Of a DNA stretch of 43,959 bases, positions 10,408 through 40,529 are shown one piece after another. The translations under genes and the position numbers were made by a program. The DNA is from a virus, in IMG/VR virus record IMGVR_UViG_3300014868_000003, positions 1 to 43,959 of that record; one strand, 5' to 3'. The notes below the pieces were generated by a model that saw only the letters and a list, made by a program, of their open reading frames with translations, was not told the origin of the DNA and did no database searches. Every line of letters starts with the position of its first letter. Position 1 is the stretch's first letter.

Positions 10408-10934
10408 GGGGCTGGCGCTGCGACAACCTGTTCAGCAAGCGCACGACGGCGAAGACGGCCTCGAAGGCGCTCAATGCCGTGAGCAATGCCACGCTGACCG
10501 TGACGGCGGCCGCGTCAGGCTTCGACGGCAACCTGATCACCGTGGCCCTGGTCACCGGGGCCCCGACGATTGACGTCACGATGGCCGCGGTCCTCTCGGG
10601 CACGGCGATCACCGTGACGCTCGGGACGGATGGCGCTGGCGTCCTGGACGACACGAAGAACACGGGCACGCTCGTCGCCGCGGCGATTGACGCCTTGGCG
10701 AATGTGACGTGTACCACCAGTGGCACCGGGGCCGGCATCGTCGCGCCGGTAGCCTCGCAAGCCCTCGCCGGCGGCTCGGACGTCATGACCGTGCGGGATC
10801 TGGCGCGGAAGGCCAACGTGTCCGACCAGTTGATCCAGAACCTCGAGCGCGGCGGCAACTGCGAGGTCCACGAAGCGCAGCGGATCGCCGACGCCTTGTC
10901 CGAAACGGTCTCGTCCTTGGGGTCGGGCCTCTGA
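10404..10934 (+). CDS. beta-rich structural protein fused to an XRE-like HTH
   Basis: 176 residues from ATG 10404. Residues about 25-125 are Thr/Ala/Val/Gly-rich, with strands such as TLTVTAAASGFDGNLITVAL, like a head decoration or tail-tube-type beta domain. Residues 128-173 switch to a helix-turn-helix pattern: MTVRDLARKANVSDQLIQNL, then ERGGNCEVHEAQRIADALS, as in XRE-family domains. An internal ATG (10785) could start the HTH alone. In this context the domain may act in virion assembly or be a separately translated regulator. The stop shares one base with the next ATG. Confidence 0.6.
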   Translation: MRGWRCDNLFSKRTTAKTASKALNAVSNATLTVTAAASGFDGNLITVALVTGAPTIDVTMAAVLSGTAITVTLGTDGAGVLDDTKNTGTLVAAAIDALANVTCTTSGTGAGIVAPVASQALAGGSDVMTVRDLARKANVSDQLIQNLERGGNCEVHEAQRIADALSETVSSLGSGL

Positions 10935-13927
10935 TGCGTCTCCGGATCTGTTTCACGATCGATTCGGTCCCCTTCACGGCCTCCGTGATCGCGGGGATGA
11001 CCTCGCTCGGCGGGTCGGAGTCGGCGTGTCTCGGCCTCGCTCGGGCGCTGCAGGCGCGCGGGCACGACGTGCATATCTTCGTGAGCCAGCTCACGACGGA
11101 TGCGCCCGGAGTCGATCAGTACGGCGTCGGCTGGCACGCGATCGGCCAACTCGCGGGCTGGTCGACGCTCATGGATTGGGACGTGGCAATCGCGCTGCGT
11201 CAGCCGCAATTTCTGCAGCACGCCCCGGCAAAACTGCGCGTCCTTTGGGGGCAGGACTTGATGGCGAACCAGGCCATGCATCTCTACCAGATGAGCCTGG
11301 CCTGGACCTATGACGCGGTCGCCTACGTGTCCGACTTCCACCGGCATCAGTGGGAGGCAATCTCCCCGGAACTCGCCCCGCTCGGGTGGGTGACGAAGAA
11401 CGGCCACGATGCGAGGCTCGCCGCCGAGGCGCGCGCGGCCGCGGTCAAGAAGCCGCACCAGATCATCCACGTCTCCCGTCCGGAGCGCGGGCTGGCGCCG
11501 CTCCTGACCATGTGGCCGATGCTCAAGGCGAAGTATCCCAAGGCCACGCTCGCCCTTTGCCGCTACTCGTCCATGTATGACACGGCGGGCTGGGGCGCGA
11601 TCTGCGCGGAGTTCGACAAGGCCGTCGGGCAGATGAACCAGGAAGTCGGCGGGATCTCCTGGCTCGGCGAGCTCGGCAAGCCGGCGCTCTACAAAGCCAT
11701 CGCGGAATCGGCCGTCATGTGGTACCCGGGCGTGTCGACGTTCGGCGAGACGTCGTGCATCGCCGCGATCGAAGCGCAAGCGTGCGGGACACCGTTCGTC
11801 GGCTCCTACAAAGGGGCGCTCCCGGAAACCGTGCCGAGCGGCATCCTGATCCCTGGCATTGCGGAGTCCGACGAGGCGTATCAGTCAGCGGCGATCGCGG
11901 CCGTGATCGACATGCTGGACGGCTGCGCCAAACAGCAATTCGCCTATCGCCAGCGGGTCAACGACGGCCTCCGGCACGTCCAGGGCTACAGCTACGAAGC
12001 CGTGGCGGCCGAGTGGGAAGCGTTCATCCTGCAGAGCTTCGAGGCTCGCTACGCCCGCGAGAAGGCCGGCATCTTGCGCCGGCTGAAGCACGAAGACGAC
12101 TACGTGACCGCCCGGATCGTCGCCGAGGAGTTGGGCGACGTCGCCGAGCTGGCCGACTGCGACTCCGTTTTGACCGGGGAAGTCGCCCCCGAGGATTACG
12201 CGCGCCATGCGCTCGATCCGCTGCTCGAGTTGGGCGATACCCGCCTGAATACCGTCGTGAAGATGTTCGAGGGTTGCCAGCGGGTGCTCGACGTGGCCTG
12301 TGGCTCGGGGGCGTATCCCGTCGCCTTGGCCTTGGCCGACCCTACCAGGCACGTTGTGGCGGTCGACTACGCCGCGGGGAACATCGCCTCGGGGCGGCAT
12401 GCCGCCGAAGTCAAAGGCGTTGCGGATCGAATCACCTGGGCCGAAGGCTCGGCGTGGGACATGGCGAACCAGCGGCCGTCCGAGTGGCTGGCTGGGGCGC
12501 TGCAGACCGACGCGGGCACGTTCGACGGGCTGTGGTGTGGCGAGTTCCTGGAGCACGTTGTGGACTGCTCGGGGCTGGTCCGGACGCTCGATCGTCTGGT
12601 CACGCCCGGAGGACGAGTGGCCTACAGCGTGCCCCAGGGCCCGCTCCACAGCATCGCGACACGGCACATGGAGACCCATCGGTCGCACGTCCACCACTTC
12701 CGGCCGGCGGACTTGGCGGCGATCTTCGGGCAAAAAGCCGAGTACCGCGCCGTGGTCATGCCGTGGCTGCAAGGTGGGGCGCGTGGCGAAGCCCTCGGCA
12801 ACTGGATTCTGAGCTACCGCCGCGGGACGACGGACGATACCGGGATGCGGCCGCTTGACCGCCGGCGCCTGTTGCGCCCCTACGCCCGACTGACGGCCGG
12901 GATCATCACGAACGACGCCCTGGATCTGCGGCGCTGCCTCGACGCGATCTGGCCGGTAGTGGACGAGATTGTGATTGGCGACTGTGGGGCGCGTGCTGAT
13001 GACCTGGCCGCCATCGTGGCCGAGTTCCCCCGCAAGACGCGCGTGATCCACGTCGGGCCCGTGCCGGACCTGCACGGCGGATTCTCCGAAGCTCGGAATC
13101 GGGTGCTCGCCGAGGCGTCGGGCGAGTGGTTCCTGTGGATCGACTCTGACGAAGTCCTGTGTGGGGCGAGGGATCTGGGCAAGTACCTCGACGGGCCCAC
13201 GTTCCAGGGCTACGTCATCACCCAGAACCATCTCCACCTGGACGCCAGCATGACGCGGGACACGCCCGTCCGGCTGTTCCGGAAGCGGCCGGAGATCAAG
13301 TTCTACGGGTGCGTTCACGAACAGCCGCAGTGGAAGGACGCGAACGGCGAGATCCAGCCGGCACTGCAAGTGGCCGACGTCCAGATCGCGCACACCGGCT
13401 ACCTCTACGAAGGCATCCGCCGCGAGAAGTGCCTGACCCGGAATCTGCCGTTGCTCATCCGCGATCAGCAGGTCTTCCCCGAGCGCGAGTTGGGCAAGGT
13501 GCTCGTCTTGCGGGACTACGCGAATCTCGCCCTGTGGGCGCGTGAGCGGTCGGGTGGGAAACTAACCGACGAAATCAAGACCTACCAGGGCAAGGTGATC
13601 GGCCTGTTCGAGGAGAACTTTTTCGACCCGATGAACAAGTACCACGGCATCGCGCGCCCGTTCTACGAAGCGGCCCTGAAGGACGTCGCGGGCGCACTGC
13701 AAGTCGAAGTCGCGATCACGGGTGGACTGGCGCCTGACGGCCTGAACGGGACAAAAGGCGTCCCCGAACGGATCTGGGTCCGCAAGCCGGAACACCTTCG
13801 GACGCTGTTGGCCGGCCGCGTGGAAGCCATGTTGAAGCCGCTCGAGTCGACCGCGCCAGACATTGACGTTGAGCCGTGGCCGCCGGCGGTGGCGGTGGTT
13901 CCGGAACGAGAGGCGGTGTCCGCGTGA
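10934..13927 (+). CDS. trifunctional GT4 / SAM methyltransferase / GT2 protein
   Basis: 997 residues from ATG 10934 (TGATG overlap). Three enzymes appear in order. (1) A GT4-type glycosyltransferase, about 1-370: N-terminal ICFTIDSV, a Gly-rich TSLGGSESACLGLARAL loop, and an exact E-x7-E at E272/E280 in PGVSTFGETSCIAAIEAQAC. (2) A class I methyltransferase, about 430-630: motif I VLDVACGSGAYP (451-462), acidic VVAVDYA, then FDGLWCGEFLEHV. (3) A GT2 domain, about 650-830: LTAGIITNDALDLRRCLDAI, with a DxD-type motif at 737-739 in WFLWIDSDEV. Likely role: building or methylating a glycan on virion proteins or the host surface. Very large for a phage enzyme and set among head genes. Confidence 0.85.
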   Translation: MRLRICFTIDSVPFTASVIAGMTSLGGSESACLGLARALQARGHDVHIFVSQLTTDAPGVDQYGVGWHAIGQLAGWSTLMDWDVAIALRQPQFLQHAPAKLRVLWGQDLMANQAMHLYQMSLAWTYDAVAYVSDFHRHQWEAISPELAPLGWVTKNGHDARLAAEARAAAVKKPHQIIHVSRPERGLAPLLTMWPMLKAKYPKATLALCRYSSMYDTAGWGAICAEFDKAVGQMNQEVGGISWLGELGKPALYKAIAESAVMWYPGVSTFGETSCIAAIEAQACGTPFVGSYKGALPETVPSGILIPGIAESDEAYQSAAIAAVIDMLDGCAKQQFAYRQRVNDGLRHVQGYSYEAVAAEWEAFILQSFEARYAREKAGILRRLKHEDDYVTARIVAEELGDVAELADCDSVLTGEVAPEDYARHALDPLLELGDTRLNTVVKMFEGCQRVLDVACGSGAYPVALALADPTRHVVAVDYAAGNIASGRHAAEVKGVADRITWAEGSAWDMANQRPSEWLAGALQTDAGTFDGLWCGEFLEHVVDCSGLVRTLDRLVTPGGRVAYSVPQGPLHSIATRHMETHRSHVHHFRPADLAAIFGQKAEYRAVVMPWLQGGARGEALGNWILSYRRGTTDDTGMRPLDRRRLLRPYARLTAGIITNDALDLRRCLDAIWPVVDEIVIGDCGARADDLAAIVAEFPRKTRVIHVGPVPDLHGGFSEARNRVLAEASGEWFLWIDSDEVLCGARDLGKYLDGPTFQGYVITQNHLHLDASMTRDTPVRLFRKRPEIKFYGCVHEQPQWKDANGEIQPALQVADVQIAHTGYLYEGIRREKCLTRNLPLLIRDQQVFPERELGKVLVLRDYANLALWARERSGGKLTDEIKTYQGKVIGLFEENFFDPMNKYHGIARPFYEAALKDVAGALQVEVAITGGLAPDGLNGTKGVPERIWVRKPEHLRTLLAGRVEAMLKPLESTAPDIDVEPWPPAVAVVPEREAVSA

Positions 13928-15419: not shown

Positions 15420-16481
15420 ATGGCAGGAGTCACCGGCCGGGAAGTCAAAATCGCGTTCGCCAAGTTCGCGACGAACTCGTGGGGCGTGGCCGCCTCGGTC
15501 ACCCGCGGGGCCTACTTTCAGACGACCGGCGGGCTGCGTCTGCAGCCGATGCGCGTCAACGACGAAGCCTTCGGCCAGGCGTTTCTCGGCCGCGGGGATC
15601 TGGGCGACGTCACCCCGCCGGACCTGACGTGGGTCGGGCGCAGCCGGTACGACGACCACGGCTTCGTCCTCGATGCGCTCGCGATGGGCTCGCCCGTGGC
15701 GGCCACGCTGTCGAACTCGGCCGCCGGCCAAGTCGCGTCGTATCAACACATCATCGACCTCGCCGCGTCGACCGATGGGCTGGGGCTCACGGCCGCGGCC
15801 GACAAAGTCCTCTACGTTGACGAGTTGACCTCGGCCAAGGTCTTCGGCTTCGGCGAGACGGTGGGCGACGGCGGGGTCATGGATCGCAGCTACCGGCTGC
15901 TCGGCTCCAAGCCCACCAACATCTCGTCGATCAACACGCGGTCGACCGTGCATGGCGCGTCGTTCGTGCCGTTGGGGAATCGCGTGTTCCGGAATCAGGG
16001 CACGTTCCGTCTCAACGTCCAGGGCGGGAACTCGCTCGTCGCGGCCGACGCCATCAAGATCGAACAGTTCGAGTTCACCTTCGAGCGGCCCCAGGATGGG
16101 CCGCACGTCTTCTCGCAGGACTACATCTTCGAGCCGGCCGACAACGGCTTCCCGGTGGTGCAGTTCAAGGTGACGTATCCGCGGATGACGACAATCTCGG
16201 CGAGTTCGCTCTACGCGGCCTTGCGGACGAACCCGATCTTCAAGGCGGATCTGACGTTCAGCGGGGCCTTCATCAACTCAACCGACCAGTACAAGCGGGT
16301 GTACGAGTTCCCGCATGTGGAATTAGACGGATGGAACGGGGCCGACGTGTCCGGCGCCGAACAGGTCAAGCCCGAGGCGACCTTCACGGCCAAGCTGGCG
16401 ACGTCGAGCCCCGCCAACATGCCCTTCGTCAATCCGTTCCGGCTCACGCTGATCAACACGCACGCCGCCGCGGCGTTCTAA
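15420..16481 (+). CDS. major tail tube protein
   Basis: 353 residues from ATG 15420, with a GTAGGAGA site upstream. The protein is beta-rich: EVKIAFAKFATNSWGVAASV at the start, many Thr/Ser/Val strands, and a C-terminal domain (ADLTFSGAFINSTDQYKRVY). Position before a frameshifted chaperone pair and the tape measure is the standard place for the tail tube. The length is large for a tube subunit and suggests an added surface domain. No sheath gene is present, which argues for a siphovirus. Confidence 0.75.
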   Translation: MAGVTGREVKIAFAKFATNSWGVAASVTRGAYFQTTGGLRLQPMRVNDEAFGQAFLGRGDLGDVTPPDLTWVGRSRYDDHGFVLDALAMGSPVAATLSNSAAGQVASYQHIIDLAASTDGLGLTAAADKVLYVDELTSAKVFGFGETVGDGGVMDRSYRLLGSKPTNISSINTRSTVHGASFVPLGNRVFRNQGTFRLNVQGGNSLVAADAIKIEQFEFTFERPQDGPHVFSQDYIFEPADNGFPVVQFKVTYPRMTTISASSLYAALRTNPIFKADLTFSGAFINSTDQYKRVYEFPHVELDGWNGADVSGAEQVKPEATFTAKLATSSPANMPFVNPFRLTLINTHAAAAF

Positions 16482-16492
16482 CGGAGGATTTT

Positions 16493-16912
16493 GTGCCCGT
16501 TTCCCTGATGAAAGACGGCGACCTGATCGTCGTCAAGGATTCCGAGTTGGTCGCCGGGGGCGATCCGGACACGTCGTACTCGCTGCGTCCGCTCACGCGC
16601 GAGATCCGGAAAGAGATCCTCGCGAAGAATACGTCCCGTGTTCCGAACCGGCGGACGCATCAAATGGACGAGCAGATCGACGGCGAAGGAGTCGGCTGGG
16701 ATCTGCTCGACTACAGCCTCGTCTCCTGGGACGGGATCTTGTGGGACGGGCAGCCGGCGCCGTGCGAGCGCGACTACAAGCTGAAGCTCGATCCGACGCG
16801 CTCGGTGGCGCTGCTCGAAAAGGCGGGGCTGTCCCAGGTCATCGCGGCCGAGGTGGCGCGGCCAGAAACTTTTCGCGCGCCTGCAGCAATTCGCCGAGTG
16901 GTGGGTGAGTGA
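16493..16912 (+). CDS. tail assembly chaperone (gpG-like)
   Basis: 139 residues from GTG 16493, with a strong GGAGGA site. It includes VSLMKDGDLIVVKDSELVAG and REIRKEILAKNTSRV. It lies between tail tube and tape measure, where siphophages encode a chaperone made in two forms by ribosomal frameshifting. Near the end, ACT TTT CGC at 16868-16876 offers a +1 slip (TTT to TTC keeps tRNA-Phe pairing). The +1 frame reads FARLQQFAEWWVSEGR straight into the next ORF. The in-frame product ends at TGA 16910-16912. Confidence 0.75.
   Translation: MPVSLMKDGDLIVVKDSELVAGGDPDTSYSLRPLTREIRKEILAKNTSRVPNRRTHQMDEQIDGEGVGWDLLDYSLVSWDGILWDGQPAPCERDYKLKLDPTRSVALLEKAGLSQVIAAEVARPETFRAPAAIRRVVGE
16871..16874 (+). 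other. candidate +1 ribosomal frameshift site (TTT C)
   Basis: In the chaperone frame, TTT occupies the P-site with C next, so the Phe tRNA can re-pair on TTC after a one-base forward slip. Reading then continues at GCG 16875 through LQQFAEWWVSEGR to the stop at 17219, giving a gpGT-like protein of about 241 residues. A -2 shift would reach the same frame but no matching slippery run is seen. Confidence 0.5.
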
Positions 16913-17219
16913 GGGACGGATTACCCCGTGCTGTCAAACCTCCGACGAGGAGATCGTCAGGACCGACCCGAGCGTCTTCAACTGCGAGACGTGCGCGGTC
17001 CGGTCCGCCATCGAGGCGCTCGATTCCGTGAACGCCGAGGCGTGGGGACACTTCCGACGCCTCTGCACCCGCTTTCTCTTCGAGACCAAATCTACGCCGG
17101 TCGCGCTGGCACGGATCACCGAGTCTCTCGACGCCGAGGACTGCGCCGAACTCCTGCAGCGGTTCGCCATTCTGTACGACGCCTACTACCCGGTGAAGGT
17201 GGCTAACCGTGGCGCGTGA
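16905..17219 (+). CDS. tail assembly chaperone extension (gpT-like)
   Basis: Opens as an ORF at GTG 16905 (104 residues) but has no good ribosome site. Its frame is already open upstream inside the chaperone gene, where it encodes a convincing helix (FARLQQFAEWWVSEGR). It therefore most likely makes only the C-terminal part of a +1 frameshift fusion. Content: CCQTSDEEIV, CETCAVRSAIEALDSVNAEA (a CxxC pair) and helices LQRFAILYDAYYPV. It overlaps the tape measure start by 11 bases. Role: chaperoning the tape measure during tail assembly. Confidence 0.65.
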   Translation: MSEGRITPCCQTSDEEIVRTDPSVFNCETCAVRSAIEALDSVNAEAWGHFRRLCTRFLFETKSTPVALARITESLDAEDCAELLQRFAILYDAYYPVKVANRGA

Positions 17220-19089
17220 ACTCCAGATCCGGATCGAGGTGCAGGACAGTGCCGCGGCGCGCGCGGCGCTGGAGACCGTCGAGACCGGGCTGAAGCAAGT
17301 CGAGGAAGCCGGCGGGAAGACTGCGGCGAAGCTCGGCAACACGTCGTCGACCGATTCCAGTCCGACGCTCGTCGGCTCGATGAAGGCGTTCCGCAATGTC
17401 GCCGTCGGTCTTGGGCTCGGTGCCGCCGTGAGTCGCGTCGTGGAGTTCGGCGGACGGCTGACGGACCTCGCGGCGCAGACCGGCATCGGTGTTGAAGCGT
17501 TGCAGCGTCTCGACGCGGTCGGCCAGACGGTCGGTGTCGGGCTCGAGCAGGCGGCGCGCGGCGTCAACATGATGCAGCGGAATCTGGTCGGCGACGAAGG
17601 CGCACAAAAGGCGGTCGCTGGACTCGGCCTCGAAGTCGACGCGCTGCTCAAGATGAAGCCAGATGAGGCGTTCATTGCGATTGCGCGCGAGATCGCGAAG
17701 ATTCCCGACCCCGCCGAGCGCACGGCGACGGCGGTCGAAGTGCTCGGCCGGTCCGGGCAGCAGTTGCTCCCGTTGCTCCTGGCGGACATCGAGGGCATCG
17801 GCAACGGCGTCGAGGTCATGAATGCGAAGACGGTCGCCGGCCTCGACCAATGGGACGACAGTTGGGCCCGCATCAAGCAGATCGCCACGGCGTCGATCGG
17901 CAACGTCGTCGGGGCGTTCGGCTCATGGGAAGGCGCCGTGAAGCTCCTGATCGACATCAACCCCTTTCTCACGGAGTCGATGAAGACGCAGGCGAAGGAA
18001 GGCTTCGACAAGTTCAGGGTGGCCGTGGGCGAGGCCACGGTCTCGGTCAAGACGTTCTACGAAGACAGTAAAGCCTGGCTCGTCGACAAGTGGGTCGCCG
18101 TGCGCGACGGTTTCCGCGCCAACTGGCAGACGCTCGCCGGCTACGTGAAGACCGCGAAGGACGCCGTCATCGGCTACGCGCGCGAGTTGTATACCGGCGT
18201 CAAAACGTGGGTCGTGGATCGCTTCTCGGACATCGTCTCCGGCGTGAAAACGAAGATCGACGCGGTCACGGGATTCTTCCGCGACATGTACGACAAGGTG
18301 GTCGGCCAGTCCTACGTCCCCGACATGGTCCGCGGGATCGACCTGGAGTTTCAGAAGTTGGGCGGGATCATGGTCAAGCCCACGAAGATCGCGACGGACC
18401 AGGTCGTCGACACGTTCCGGTCGATGCTGCAGAACATTCAGGGGCTCTTCTCCAGTTTCGGCGCGTCCGTCAGTGGCTGGCTGCAAAGCATGGTCGCCGG
18501 CCCGATTGGCGGGGCCTTGGGCTCGATTGTCGGTCAGGTGATCTCCGGCCTCGGGAGCCTGCTCACGGGCGGCATTACCTCGCTCGTCAACATGGCCGTG
18601 CAACTCGTCTGGTCGGGCCTCAAGAAGATCGGCTCGGCGATTAAGGACTTTTTCAGTAGCACGACGGTCGAGGAAGTCAAAACCGGCTTTACCGAGCAGT
18701 TGGGCTTCGAGAATCGCGATGCGTTGTTCAAGGCGTTGCTCGATGCGAACCGGATGGATCTCATCAATCGGTTCTTCGAGGTCGACAACTCGAAGATGGG
18801 CACGAAGCTCCTGGGCGACTGGATGACGGACGTCCGGGCCGCGCTGGGCTTCGCCGGCGGGACAGACGGGCAGTTCCTCGACTTCGGACAGGGCCGCATG
18901 GCGATGCTCCACGGCGAGGAAGCCGTCGTGCGCCGTCAGGACAGCCAGGGGCTCGCCGAGGCGATTGCGGGGGCATTGGGCGGCAAGGTGGGCGGCGGGA
19001 CGGTGCAGGTCTTCATCGGGCCCAGGAAGCTCGCGGAAATCATCATGCCGGAACTCCCCGGCGTCGTGCGCCGGTACGGATTGGCGTAG
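17209..19089 (+). CDS. tail tape measure protein
   Basis: 626 residues from GTG 17209. The N-terminus is coiled coil (ALETVETGLKQVEEAGGKTA), then a TMP-like core (FGGRLTDLAAQTGIGVEALQ), long amphipathic helices and a hydrophobic stretch at about 430-470 (GGALGSIVGQVISGLGSLLT, SLVNMAVQLVW). Such segments in tape measures are linked to DNA ejection across the membrane. The C-terminal end contains VQVFIGPRKLAEIIMPEL. At roughly 0.15 nm per residue this would set a tail near 90-95 nm (family rule of thumb). Position and length support the call. Confidence 0.85.
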   Translation: MARELQIRIEVQDSAAARAALETVETGLKQVEEAGGKTAAKLGNTSSTDSSPTLVGSMKAFRNVAVGLGLGAAVSRVVEFGGRLTDLAAQTGIGVEALQRLDAVGQTVGVGLEQAARGVNMMQRNLVGDEGAQKAVAGLGLEVDALLKMKPDEAFIAIAREIAKIPDPAERTATAVEVLGRSGQQLLPLLLADIEGIGNGVEVMNAKTVAGLDQWDDSWARIKQIATASIGNVVGAFGSWEGAVKLLIDINPFLTESMKTQAKEGFDKFRVAVGEATVSVKTFYEDSKAWLVDKWVAVRDGFRANWQTLAGYVKTAKDAVIGYARELYTGVKTWVVDRFSDIVSGVKTKIDAVTGFFRDMYDKVVGQSYVPDMVRGIDLEFQKLGGIMVKPTKIATDQVVDTFRSMLQNIQGLFSSFGASVSGWLQSMVAGPIGGALGSIVGQVISGLGSLLTGGITSLVNMAVQLVWSGLKKIGSAIKDFFSSTTVEEVKTGFTEQLGFENRDALFKALLDANRMDLINRFFEVDNSKMGTKLLGDWMTDVRAALGFAGGTDGQFLDFGQGRMAMLHGEEAVVRRQDSQGLAEAIAGALGGKVGGGTVQVFIGPRKLAEIIMPELPGVVRRYGLA

Positions 19090-30660: not shown

Positions 30661-30789
30661 TCACCGCGGATAGCCTGGGTCGTAGGGCTGGCTGAAGTCG
30701 CAGAATGTGGCGATCAGGGCCCCGAGCAGGATCAAGATGGCTGGGCCGTAGGCGATGAGGCGAGTCCCGAAGAGGCGTAGCGCGTTCAT
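30661..30789 (-). CDS. small membrane protein after integrase
   Basis: 42 residues on the minus strand. The start (ATG, 30789-30787) overlaps the integrase stop (ATGA), so it is coupled to integrase translation. One hydrophobic segment (LIAYGPAILILLGALIATFC) follows a basic start (MNALRLFGTR). It could be a lysogeny-associated membrane protein such as an exclusion or toxin-like factor; no family is recognised. It converges on the late operon with only 1 base between stops. Confidence 0.5.
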   Translation of the reverse strand: MNALRLFGTRLIAYGPAILILLGALIATFCDFSQPYDPGYPR

Positions 30790-31964
30790 GGAGTCTCCCT
30801 GAGCGTGTCCAAGTAGTCCGCCCACGTCTGCATCAACACGGTCCGTTGGGGCAGGTAGCGGGCGCGATTATACGCGGCCCCGAGTGGCCCAGGCGCCGCG
30901 TGCGCGAGCTGGACTTCGATCACGAATGGGTCCGCGTGCAACTGCTCGGCCAGGAGCGTCCGCGCCGTCGCCCTGAATCCGTGGGCCGTCATCGCGTGCT
31001 TGTCATAGCCCAGCCGTCGTAAGGCGGCGTTCAGGGTGTTATTTGACATCGGACGGGCAGACGTCCGCACGGCGGGGAAGATGTACCGCCCCTTGCCGGT
31101 GAGCGCGGCCGCGGTCTCGAGGACGGCGATCGCCTGACTGGACAGGGGCACCAAGTGGGCCGCCTTCTGTTTCATCCGAGCCGCGGGAATCCGCCACAGC
31201 TTCCCCGCCGTGTCGACGTCCTTCCACTCGGCCAGCCGCAACTCCCCAGGGCGGACGAACACGAGCGCAGCGAACTGCAGAGCAGCCCTGACCAGCGGCG
31301 TACCCTCCAGGCTATCGATCGCCCGGAGCAGGGCCCCGACCTCACGCGGGTCGGTGACCGCCGCATGGTGGCGCACCGCCGGCGCCGTCGCGAGGGCCCC
31401 TTTCAGGTCGGCCGTCACGTCTCGAGCCGCCCACCCGTGCGCCACGGCGTACCTCAGGACTTGCGAGCAGACGGACTTCGCCCGTCTGGCGGTCACCGGC
31501 GTCTCGCTGGCCGTAGCGAGCGCGGCGAGGACGTCCGCCGGCGTCAGGCTCCCCACGGGCCGATGGCCCAGCGACGGGATCAACACGCGCTCGAGCAGCC
31601 ACCGGGAGCGCGTCTCCGTGCGCGGGGCGAGTGAGCGCGCGCGGCCGGTCAGCCACGTCCGTCCCACCGCGGCAAACGTGGTATCGGCGTTATGGCGGCC
31701 TTTGGCGTGGCGCCGGCGCTCAGCGGGGTCCTCGCCTGCCGCGACGAGTCTGCGCGCCTCCTGGAGCCGCTCACGGGCTTGCAGAAGCGTCACGTCGTCG
31801 TACAGGCCGAGTGTCAGCGTCTTCTGCCGGCCGCCGATCGCGTAATTGTAGCGCCATGACTTCGCGCCCTTCAGACTGACATAGAGGTAGAGCCCGCAGC
31901 CGTCGCCCAGCTTGTAGGGCTTGGCCTTCGGCTTCGCGGCTCTGACAGCGAGGTCAGTCAGCAT
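30786..31964 (-). CDS. int: tyrosine integrase (P4-like)
   Basis: 392 residues; catalyses site-specific insertion of the phage genome. N-terminal DUF4102 arm-binding domain (KPYKLGDGCGLYLYV, SWRYNYAIGGRQKTLTLGLY), a core-binding domain (about 95-190) and a catalytic domain with R238 (FVRPGELRLAEW), the HGFR box H328/R331 (AHGFRATARTLLAE), H355 (LAHA) and probable nucleophile Y365 (GAAYNRARYL). P4-family integrases usually target tRNA genes; no tRNA or attachment core could be read here. A palindrome overlaps its start codon (see 31964-32003). Confidence 0.9.
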   Translation of the reverse strand: MLTDLAVRAAKPKAKPYKLGDGCGLYLYVSLKGAKSWRYNYAIGGRQKTLTLGLYDDVTLLQARERLQEARRLVAAGEDPAERRRHAKGRHNADTTFAAVGRTWLTGRARSLAPRTETRSRWLLERVLIPSLGHRPVGSLTPADVLAALATASETPVTARRAKSVCSQVLRYAVAHGWAARDVTADLKGALATAPAVRHHAAVTDPREVGALLRAIDSLEGTPLVRAALQFAALVFVRPGELRLAEWKDVDTAGKLWRIPAARMKQKAAHLVPLSSQAIAVLETAAALTGKGRYIFPAVRTSARPMSNNTLNAALRRLGYDKHAMTAHGFRATARTLLAEQLHADPFVIEVQLAHAAPGPLGAAYNRARYLPQRTVLMQTWADYLDTLRETP

Positions 31965-34370: not shown

Positions 34371-34832
34371 ATGCGAAGCAGTCTAGCACGGCAGGCGTGG
34401 GAAGTCGCCGCCACGATGAACGAGGCGCAGCGCGGTGCGCTGGAGGAAATCATGCCAGCGCCCTTGCCGCCGAAAGCGCCGAACGTGATCGCCGAGGCGA
34501 TGGTGGAGCGGGCCGTGAACAAGCTGGCCGACCACCTGAGCGCGCTCGACAACGCGCCATATGGCTTGGAGGGCGTGGCGCTGGAGACGATGCCCGAGGA
34601 CTACCGGCTGAAGCTCGTCAACGACGCCACGGTGATCTACACGTCGCGCAATCCGCGGCTCCGGGCCAACGCTGAGTCCCGCGTCGTGCAGCGCATTCTC
34701 AACCGGGAGGAAGCGGCGCACGAAGAGCGCGGCGAGGACTTCACCGAGGCCGAACGCCAGCGCGTGGAACAGATCGCGTCTGAGGCCCTGCACTTGCTCA
34801 CGCGGGAACTGTTGCGGGAGGCCGGCCGATGA
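34371..34832 (+). CDS. helical early protein beside ERF
   Basis: 153 residues from ATG 34371; a GTG at 34368 is better spaced from AGGAG (34356-34360). Helical throughout (LARQAWEVAATMNEAQRGAL, AMVERAVNKLADHLSALDNA, ERQRVEQIASEALHLLTREL). The stop overlaps the ERF gene (ATGA). Its position suggests a recombination accessory or single-strand DNA-binding helper. No named family. Confidence 0.55.
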   Translation: MRSSLARQAWEVAATMNEAQRGALEEIMPAPLPPKAPNVIAEAMVERAVNKLADHLSALDNAPYGLEGVALETMPEDYRLKLVNDATVIYTSRNPRLRANAESRVVQRILNREEAAHEERGEDFTEAERQRVEQIASEALHLLTRELLREAGR

Positions 34833-35614
34833 GCCCTGTCACCCAACCGGAACTCTCGCCCGTGGTGGACTTGGAAGTCCGGCCGAAGGGCGAAGCCTTG
34901 CAGGCGACCGTGGAGAGCGGTCTGACGATCTTCGAGCGCATGGCCCGCGATCCCTCGGTGGACGTGGACAAGCTGGAACGCCTGATGCAGATGCACGAGC
35001 GGGCAACGGCGCGGTTCGCGGAGGAACAGTTCAACGGGGCGATGACGTCAGCGCAGACCGAGATGCGCCAGATCGCTACGGACGCCTACAACCCGCAGAC
35101 GAAAAGCAAGTACGCCACCTACGCGAAGCTGGACTCGGCCCTTCGTCCGCTCTACACGCGCCACGGCTTCGGCCTGTCATTCGACACGGCGGAAAGCCCG
35201 CTCCCTCAGCATGTCCGCGTCCTCTGTTACGTGACCCATAACCAGGGCCACGCGCGGACCTACAAGGCGGACATTCCGGCGGACGGCAAGGGGGCCAAGG
35301 GCGGCGACGTGATGACGCTCACGCATGCCTTCGGGGCGGCGACGGCCTACGGGATGCGCTACCTGCTCAAGATGATTTTCAACGTCGCGATCGGGGAGGA
35401 AGACCGCGACGGCAACATGCCGAGAGAGACGGCGGACCCGCCGGCCGGATATGAGAAGTGGTTTACCGAGTTCAAGCTGACGGCGCCCAACGGGCTCGCG
35501 GCGTTGACGCTGTTCTTCCAGGGCGGGAAGCCGGAGTATCGCGACTTCCTGACGAAGCACGACGCGGCGCGCAAAGCCGAAATCCAGGCGGCTGCCCGAA
35601 AGGCTGGGCGCTGA
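34829..35614 (+). CDS. ERF-family single-strand annealing protein
   Basis: 261 residues from ATG 34829 (ATGA). The ERF core is visible: FNGAMTSAQTEMRQIATDAY, YATYAKLDSALRPLYTRHGF, MTLTHAFGAATAYGMRYLLK. ERF proteins anneal complementary single strands for RecA-independent recombination or to circularise phage DNA. Next comes a YqaJ-type exonuclease gene, the usual partner. The C-terminal helical tail (EIQAAARKAGR) is variable in the family. Confidence 0.85.
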   Translation: MSPVTQPELSPVVDLEVRPKGEALQATVESGLTIFERMARDPSVDVDKLERLMQMHERATARFAEEQFNGAMTSAQTEMRQIATDAYNPQTKSKYATYAKLDSALRPLYTRHGFGLSFDTAESPLPQHVRVLCYVTHNQGHARTYKADIPADGKGAKGGDVMTLTHAFGAATAYGMRYLLKMIFNVAIGEEDRDGNMPRETADPPAGYEKWFTEFKLTAPNGLAALTLFFQGGKPEYRDFLTKHDAARKAEIQAAARKAGR

Positions 35615-39686: not shown

Positions 39687-40529
39687 GCGGCCGGAAGATG
39701 TGTCCTTCGTGCGAGATCCGCTGGCCTTGGTGAGCGCATCACTGTCCGCAAGGGCGGCTACTACCGCTGCAACCAGTGCCAGGAGGATTTCACGGTCCGC
39801 ACTGGCACGATCTTCGAGCGGTCGCACATCCCGCTCCACAAGTGGGTCTACGCCATGTATCTGGTCGTGACGGCCCGCAAGGGCATCTCCTCGATGCAAC
39901 TGTCGAAGGAAATCAGCGTCACCCAGAAATCGGCGTGGTTCATGCTCCACAGGCTCCGTGAGGCGTGTGGCGGGAACTTCAAGAAGTTGAAGGGCATCAT
40001 CGAGATCGATGAGACCTACGTCGGCGGGAAGGAACGGAACAAGCACGAACGAGACAAGCTCAAAGCCGGTCGTGGGCCGGTTGGCAAGACGCCAGTCGTC
40101 GGCATGCGCGAGCGGGGCAAGGGTGGAAGGACGCTCGCGTTCGTCGCGGCGGATGTGGACCTGCCCACAGTCCACACCGCCATCTACCAGCACGTCGAAC
40201 AGGGCTCGACGCTGCACACCGACGACGCGCCGGTCTACGACGGCATCGGTGGCCTGTTCTTCAACCACGCGACGGTCAACCACACGGCGAAGGAATACTC
40301 GCGCGATGGCGTGACCACGAACAGCATCGAGAGCGTGTTCGCGGTTCTGAAGCGCGGCATCCTCGGCACGTTCCACCACATCAGCCGGAAGCACACCGGC
40401 CGCTACGTTGACGAGTTCGCGTTCCGGCTGAACGAAGGCAACTGCGCCGTTCACACGCTCGACAGGCTCGACAGTTTCATCCGTGGCTCGGCCCGGAAAC
40501 GCCTGACCTACGCGAGACTGATCGCCTAG
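39683..40529 (+). pseudogene. ISXO2-like (IS1595-type) transposase with frameshift
   Basis: ATG 39683 overlaps the upstream stop (ATGA) and begins with the first half of a zinc ribbon (MCPSC). It stops at 39728-39730. The rest of the protein is open in the +1 frame: YYRCNQCQEDFTVRTGTIFE (39760s onward), then HKWVYAMYLVVTARKGISSM, IIEIDETYVGGKERNKHERD, LHTDDAPVYD and TTNSIESVFAVLKRGILGTF. The DD(E/N) set fits IS1595 transposases. No terminal inverted repeats are seen, and the ATGA coupling shows it behaves as a phage operon gene. First ATG in the open frame is 39855, which would lose the zinc ribbon. Confidence 0.7.

What the first reader, a model, noticed from the sequence alone, without database searches (positions are those of the whole stretch)
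16493..17219. +1 frameshift (TTT C) in the tail chaperone pair
The upstream frame contains ACT TTT CGC, and a +1 slip lets tRNA-Phe re-pair on TTC. The +1 frame then reads FARLQQFAEWWVSEGR into the downstream ORF, a clearly structured helix, whereas that ORF alone lacks a ribosome site. Most known chaperone pairs use -1 shifts, so +1 would be less common.
Basis: partly seen in the sequence, partly recalled or inferred. Interest (0 to 1): 0.6.

Follow-up and report, generated by a model that had tools for sequence, protein, structure and literature searches.

The report
Phage tail-chaperone +1 ribosomal frameshift
In a family of uncultured viruses the ribosome most likely slips one base forward near the end of one tail-building gene so that it can read on into the next, at the same short signal that has been described in influenza A virus and a few salt-lake viruses.

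Summary
Upstream ORF G (GTG 16493..16912) contains ACT TTT CGC at 16868-16876; the +1 frame (open 16785..17219) encodes the second half, T. A motif-blind HMM comparison of relatives found by their tail-tube gene gave 45 contigs with both parts: 42 have T in the +1 frame of G and 3 in the -1 frame. All 42 (28 distinct junctions) have exactly one in-frame UUU_C in the last 60 nt of G, and 41 of 42 read UUU_CGN. Conservation switches frame exactly at that codon. In 15 of 28 junction types the +1 frame has no ATG/GTG/TTG before the conserved T domain. G resembles known tail assembly chaperones. The three exceptions carry -1 heptamers, so shift direction differs inside one homologous chaperone family. 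UUU_CGN is the motif of influenza A PA-X and plant amalgaviruses, and it was already proposed for HF1-group halovirus tail chaperones, so this is a new, far better supported member of a known kind. No product has been measured; efficiency and host are unknown.

The parts
16483..16487 (+). GGAGG, Shine-Dalgarno-like, 5 nt before the G start codon
   Evidence: read
16493..16912 (+). G ORF: major (0-frame) tail assembly chaperone, GTG start, 139 aa
   Evidence: relatives' G match phrog_313 'Tail assembly chaperone' (7 of 9 members of A4, best 9.8e-08; the window's own G has no hit); fold like 3klu and 2ob9
16868..16876 (+). shift site ACT_TTT_CGC (E-, P- and A-site codons); P-site UUU re-pairs with UUC 16872-16874
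   Evidence: TTT_C in 42 of 42 +1 contigs, TTT_CGN in 41 of 42
16872..17219 (+). T region read in the +1 frame: 115 aa, all-helical, invariant Cys cluster; predicted G-T fusion 241 aa
15420..16481 (+). major tail (tube) protein gene by position; used to find relatives without using the motif
   Evidence: no PHROG/Pfam name
17209..19089 (+). tape measure protein gene, overlapping the end of T
   Evidence: phrog_1535 5.1e-14 and other tape-measure families

Best explanation
16493..17219 is a G / G-T tail assembly chaperone gene expressed by programmed +1 ribosomal frameshifting. Most ribosomes read G to TGA 16910. A minority slip forward one base while tRNA-Phe holds UUU (16871) in the P site and CGC is in the A site: the tRNA re-pairs on UUC, GCG is decoded next, and a 241-residue G-T fusion is made. 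By analogy with lambda gpG/gpGT, many G and few G-T coat the tape measure protein and T recruits the tail tube protein. Shown: reading frames, conservation of the frame switch and of the site, chaperone-like G. Inferred: the slip itself, its minority share, and the job of the fusion.
For: (1) T is in the +1 frame of G in 42 of 45 contigs that hold both parts, found motif-blind with HMMs of G and T. (2) In all 42 there is exactly one in-frame TTT_C in the last 60 nt of G; 28 distinct 84-nt junctions; A-site codons CGC 19, CGT 3, CGG 3, CGA 2, CCA 1; E-site TCC 13, TCG 10, AGC 2, TCA 1, ACT 1 (window), ACG 1. (3) In 13 types anchored without gaps, frame-0 conservation stops after Phe-Arg and +1 conservation starts at the same Phe, with invariant Leu at +9 and Trp at +30. 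(4) 15 of 28 types, the window among them, have no ATG/GTG/TTG in the +1 frame up to the site; the next one lies 10 to 190 nt inside T. (5) The first T helix starts at residue 2, so GTG 16905 (T residue 12) would remove most of it. (6) G fold: 3klu (YqbN) Z 6.7, rmsd 4.3, 90 aligned; 2ob9 (HK97 chaperone) Z 6.1, rmsd 5.8, 90 aligned; phage chaperones incl. Mu FS-gp41 in BFVD. (7) Synteny tube-G-T-tape measure. (8) Published: UUU_Ynn is +1-prone in bacteria (PMC5009743) and UCC_UUU_CGU shifts +1 with a sequenced junction peptide (PMC3498833).
Against: No peptide, reporter or ribosome-profiling data. No stimulator was found: RNAalifold gives 0 pairs for 14 junctions, and the GAGG-like words at about -18 (21 of 28 types) are mostly what the conserved peptide gives (simulated mean 17.1, P 0.04; GGAGG alone P 0.11). 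TTT_CGN also occurs inside other predicted genes (20 in 47,609 codons), so the site alone may shift weakly. CGC, the commonest A-site codon, is also the commonest Arg codon of these genes (373 of 907), so a rare-codon pause does not explain it. G of the window alone has no PHROG or Pfam hit, and its model is of middling confidence (pLDDT 73.7). 3 of 45 homologous pairs use the -1 frame instead.
Confidence: 0.92

Rival explanations
1. Two separate proteins: T is translated on its own by reinitiation at GTG 16905, which overlaps the G stop (GTGAGTGA).
For: The GTG overlaps the G stop in the window. 13 of 28 junction types have some ATG/GTG/TTG upstream in the +1 frame, e.g. ATG at -8 in L005.
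Against: 15 of 28 types have none up to the site; in L014 the first is 190 nt into T. Start positions are not conserved, whereas the reading from the slip codon on is. GTG 16905 falls inside the conserved first helix and has no Shine-Dalgarno-like sequence.
Confidence: 0.04
2. Same fusion by another slip: -2 slippage, slippage at the E-site codon, or RNA-polymerase slippage.
For: -2 and +1 give the same frame; phage 9g is reported to use -2 at CCCUUUUUUU (PMC4276943, passages).
Against: tRNA-Phe has no good pairing on a -2 codon such as CUU or CGU, but pairs perfectly on UUC. The E-site codon varies (six codons) while TTT C does not. The T run is only 3 to 4 bases, too short for usual transcriptional slippage (general knowledge).
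Confidence: 0.03
3. Sequencing or assembly indel that splits one gene.
For: Metagenome contigs can carry indels (general knowledge; no call supports it here).
Against: The same +1 relation at the same codon in 42 contigs with 28 different junction sequences; frame-0 Phe-Arg is conserved up to a stop 12 to 39 nt downstream.
Confidence: 0.005

Closest known systems
HF1-group halovirus tail chaperone pair (HF2, HSTV-2)
   Same: Same gene pair and direction; [quoted passage not shown] Checked here: HSTV-2 TCC_TTT_CGC 24 nt before the stop; HF2 AAG_TTT_CGC 9 nt before it.
   Different: Archaeal myoviruses. Their G and T proteins give no significant hit to the G and T HMMs of this family (best E 0.19).
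Influenza A PA-X frameshift, UCC_UUU_CGU
   Same: UUU_C P-site, CGN A-site, UCN E-site (here TCC/TCG/TCA in 24 of 28 types); no evident stimulators (PMC3498833 and PMC5009743).
   Different: Eukaryotic ribosome, RNA virus, unrelated product.
Plant amalgavirus UUU_CGN motif
   Same: All four CGN codons occur at the A site in both (PMC5052127, passages).
   Different: Eukaryotic RNA viruses; ORF1+2 fusion.
Lambda gpG/gpGT and HK97-type tail chaperones
   Same: Gene order, overlap of two ORFs before the tape measure gene, G-part fold (2ob9).
   Different: -1 slip on heptamers (for lambda); the T domain shows no match here.
YopN-TyeA +1 frameshift (Yersinia, UUU_UGG)
   Same: Proposed bacterial UUU_Y +1 site.
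   Different: Disrupting that site did not stop hybrid formation (PMC3789692, passages).

Membership tests
Frameshifted tail assembly chaperone (G/G-T) pairs | two overlapping ORFs between tail tube and tape measure genes | tested here: met
   frames
Frameshifted tail assembly chaperone (G/G-T) pairs | G part related to known chaperones | tested here: met
   phrog_313 in 7 of 9 A4 members, not the window itself; BFVD chaperones (15 hits with E<=0.001, several so named); 3klu Z 6.7 and 2ob9 Z 6.1 stand above the next rows of 4.1 and 2.2. Z is under 8, so moderate.
Frameshifted tail assembly chaperone (G/G-T) pairs | T part related to known T domains | tested here: inconclusive
   no PHROG/Pfam family for the window T, BFVD best E 1.5, PDB best Z 3.5
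Frameshifted tail assembly chaperone (G/G-T) pairs | slip site near the end of G, conserved in relatives | tested here: met
Frameshifted tail assembly chaperone (G/G-T) pairs | fusion protein made in minority and needed for tails | not testable with these tools
   needs proteomics or genetics
UUU_CGN class of +1 shift sites | UUU_C at the P site | tested here: met
   42 of 42 +1 contigs
UUU_CGN class of +1 shift sites | CGN at the A site | tested here: met
   41 of 42 contigs; exception L029 CCA
UUU_CGN class of +1 shift sites | UCC (or UCN) at the E site; helpful, not required, in influenza, so not a defining feature | tested here: not met
   the window has ACU; in the family UCC is in 13 and UCN in 24 of 28 types
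HF1-group halovirus chaperones | sequence homology of G or T | tested here: inconclusive
   no significant HMM match; folds not compared

The most novel reading that the evidence does not exclude
One homologous chaperone family has switched shift direction while keeping the fusion: 28 types use +1 at UUU_C(GN) and 3 use -1 at A_AAA_AAA, A_AAA_AAC and C_CCA_AAC at the same junction. UUU_CGN would then be a recurrent device, used in phage-like siphoviruses, haloarchaeal myoviruses and eukaryotic RNA viruses, that works on very different ribosomes without a rare A-site codon or an evident stimulator. The direction travels with the chaperone cassette: the tube of L052 (-1) nests among +1 phages.
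Probability: 0.55. Interest if true: 0.7.

Novelty: new member of a known kind. Interest (0 to 1): 0.55.

Why it matters
+1 sites are hard to recognise, and the role of the CGN codon after UUU is an open question (PMC3498833, PMC5052127). This family gives a large natural alignment in which UUU_C never changes, all four CGN codons occur and the common CGC dominates, which argues against the rare-codon explanation. Homologous pairs with -1 sites give a matched comparison for testing whether only the ratio of G to G-T matters. It also offers a rule for annotating such pairs in metagenomic phages.

Tried and rejected
Direct searches with the window's own G or T found nothing: viral contigs, phages tblastn. 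Phages tblastn with the window tube (17), the L009 G and tube (53, 54) and the L036 T (103), and plasmids with the L036 tube (102), also found nothing. Genome contigs gave nothing with the window tube (22) and one MAG contig with A6 (57). 397 genomes of that MAG's order (tube) and 385 of its class (T) gave only the MAG itself, so the host stays unknown.

A conserved RNA stimulator was sought and not found. An upstream Shine-Dalgarno-like stimulator looked strong (21 of 28 types, against 7.7% of 2,800 control windows) but was largely explained by the conserved peptide when synonymous codons were resampled, so I do not claim it.

A reading of UCC enrichment at the E site (13 of 28 types; 156 of 981 Ser codons in the same genes) is only suggestive, because six of the 13 belong to one close clade. 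G at +4 is confounded by the +1 frame, where residue 2 is mostly Ala.

No fold in the PDB or BFVD lists matched T clearly; absence there is no proof of a new fold. A last scan with the two -1 tubes found no further -1 member, so the -1 set is 3. L003 shares only the tape measure and was left out of all counts.

Dropped before counting: 4 of 50 contigs end before the junction (L066, L078, L081, L083), and L059 ends before T. The product of TTT frequencies (10^-10.6) treats related types as independent and is not used as a probability.

Literature: (UUU_CGN, frameshift, phage) found no paper, and the listings did not show UUU_CGN for bacterial tail chaperones; the halovirus paper came out. Papers seen in passages only, unless said otherwise. 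Most subscription papers are not in the library.

Full report
What is there. The window is a 43,959-base virus record, 65% G+C. After a tail-tube-like gene (15420..16481) comes G, GTG 16493 to TGA 16910-16912 (139 codons), with GGAGG five bases before its start. The +1 frame is open from 16785 to 17219 and is followed, with overlap, by a tape measure gene at 17209 (phrog_1535 5.1e-14). In G the codons ACT TTT CGC lie at 16868-16876. Reading TTC at 16872 gives FARLQQFAEWWVSEGRITPCC..., and the fusion has 241 residues.

Relatives. The window's G and T find nothing directly, so I used the tube gene, which makes the search independent of the motif. Scans of viral contigs and genome contigs gave 50 contigs in all: the window, 48 viral contigs and one contig of a MAG labelled Xanthobacteraceae. 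Four end before the junction. In the other 46 I located G and T by HMMs built from 14 sequences (A8, A7), without asking for a slip site. One (L059) ends before T. Of 45 with both parts, T lies in the +1 frame of G in 42 and in the -1 frame in 3.

The site. All 42 +1 contigs have exactly one in-frame TTT_C in the last 60 nt of G. They represent 28 distinct 84-nt junctions. A-site codons by type: CGC 19, CGT 3, CGG 3, CGA 2, CCA 1 (L029). E-site codons: TCC 13, TCG 10, AGC 2, TCA 1, ACT 1 (the window), ACG 1. The G stop follows TTT by 12, 15, 24 or 39 nt. Elsewhere, TTT_CGN occurs 20 times in 47,609 codons of predicted genes and 3 times in 9,864 tube codons; TTT makes up 17% of Phe codons in these genes. 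The types share ancestry, so I give no P value.

Conservation switches frame at the site. In 13 types aligned without gaps on TTT, frame 0 is conserved up to Phe-Arg (Phe 13 of 13, Arg 12 of 13) and then decays. The +1 frame is weakly conserved before TTT and has invariant Phe, Leu (+9) and Trp (+30) after it. In 15 of 28 types no ATG, GTG or TTG stands in the +1 frame up to the site, and the next lies 10 to 190 nt into T. The T model (mean pLDDT 90.3) is all helical, with its first helix at residues 2-13. Independent translation from GTG 16905 would lose most of that helix.

What the proteins are. G of relatives matches phrog_313 'Tail assembly chaperone' in 7 of 9 members tested, best 9.8e-08; the window's own G does not. 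The G model (pLDDT 73.7) is closest to YqbN 3klu (Z 6.7, rmsd 4.3, 90 aligned) and the HK97 chaperone 2ob9 (Z 6.1, rmsd 5.8, 90 aligned), and to phage chaperones in BFVD, Mu FS-gp41 among them. T has conserved cysteines (CC...C..C) and no clear fold match.

How it most likely works. tRNA-Phe (anticodon GAA) reads UUU, and with CGC in the A site it re-pairs on the overlapping UUC. This is the model argued for influenza A, where the junction peptide was sequenced and efficiency was about 1% (PMC3498833, results section, part 1 of 2). UUU_Ynn is described as especially +1-prone in bacteria (PMC5009743, passages). Here the commonest A-site codon, CGC, is also the commonest Arg codon of the genes, so a slow rare codon is an unlikely cause. 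I found no conserved RNA structure, and the GAGG-like words upstream are mostly explained by the peptide. By analogy with lambda, G-T should bridge tape measure and tube; that is inference.

Direction switch. L052, L079 and L082 have homologous G (E 6.5e-14, 4.3e-07, 2.3e-12) and T (3.3e-19, 3.9e-19, 1.1e-15) but in the -1 relation. At the junction stand GAA AAA AAA CCC (A_AAA_AAA), GCA AAA AAC (A_AAA_AAC) and GAC CCA AAC (C_CCA_AAC), all of -1 type. In a G+T tree of 31 sequences the three form one side of a branch (100/99). In the tube tree L052 sits with +1 phages, beside L068 (100/100), which suggests the chaperone cassette was exchanged. The trees are unrooted, so which direction came first is not shown; three loci are few and a last scan found no more.

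Compared with what is known. HF1-group haloviruses were already proposed in 2020 to shift +1 at TTT-CGC in the same gene pair (PMC7230728, passages). I checked HSTV-2 (TCC_TTT_CGC) and HF2 (AAG_TTT_CGC); neither has detectable sequence similarity to this family in G or T. The influenza and amalgavirus sites have the same UUU_CGN core. In PRFect's training data forward sites are 350 against 2,368 backward (preprint passages). So the kind is known. New here are the family, the breadth of conservation and the homologous -1 pairs. My literature searches found no report of UUU_CGN in bacterial tail chaperones, but they cover only open papers, and the host domain of this family is itself not established.

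Verdict. The functional claim remains unmeasured.

Noticed in passing
L052:4264-4499, L079:4376-4641, L082:4542-4681: Homologous chaperone pairs with T in the -1 frame and heptamers A_AAA_AAA, A_AAA_AAC, C_CCA_AAC.
   Followed up: yes
L029:1639: The only +1 member whose A-site codon is not CGN (UUU_CCA).
   Followed up: partly
L005:8611 (also L016): An ATG in the +1 frame 8 nt before TTT, with GGAGG just upstream: this pair could also start T independently.
   Followed up: partly
window 10709-13927: A 1072-residue protein between head and tail genes with glycosyltransferase, methyltransferase and second glycosyltransferase domains.
   Followed up: no
window 39855-40529: An ISXO2/IS1595-type transposase domain (1.3e-48) inside the phage record.
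   Followed up: no
window 30786-31964: Tyrosine integrase on the minus strand: probably a temperate phage.
   Followed up: no
window 34829-35614: ERF-type recombination protein.
   Followed up: no
L003:5121-5752: A tape-measure relative with a different small ORF pair just before it, the second in the -1 (or +2) frame; not homologous by eye.
   Followed up: no
window 16929-16994: T carries invariant cysteines (CC...C..C), a possible metal site or disulphide set.
   Followed up: no
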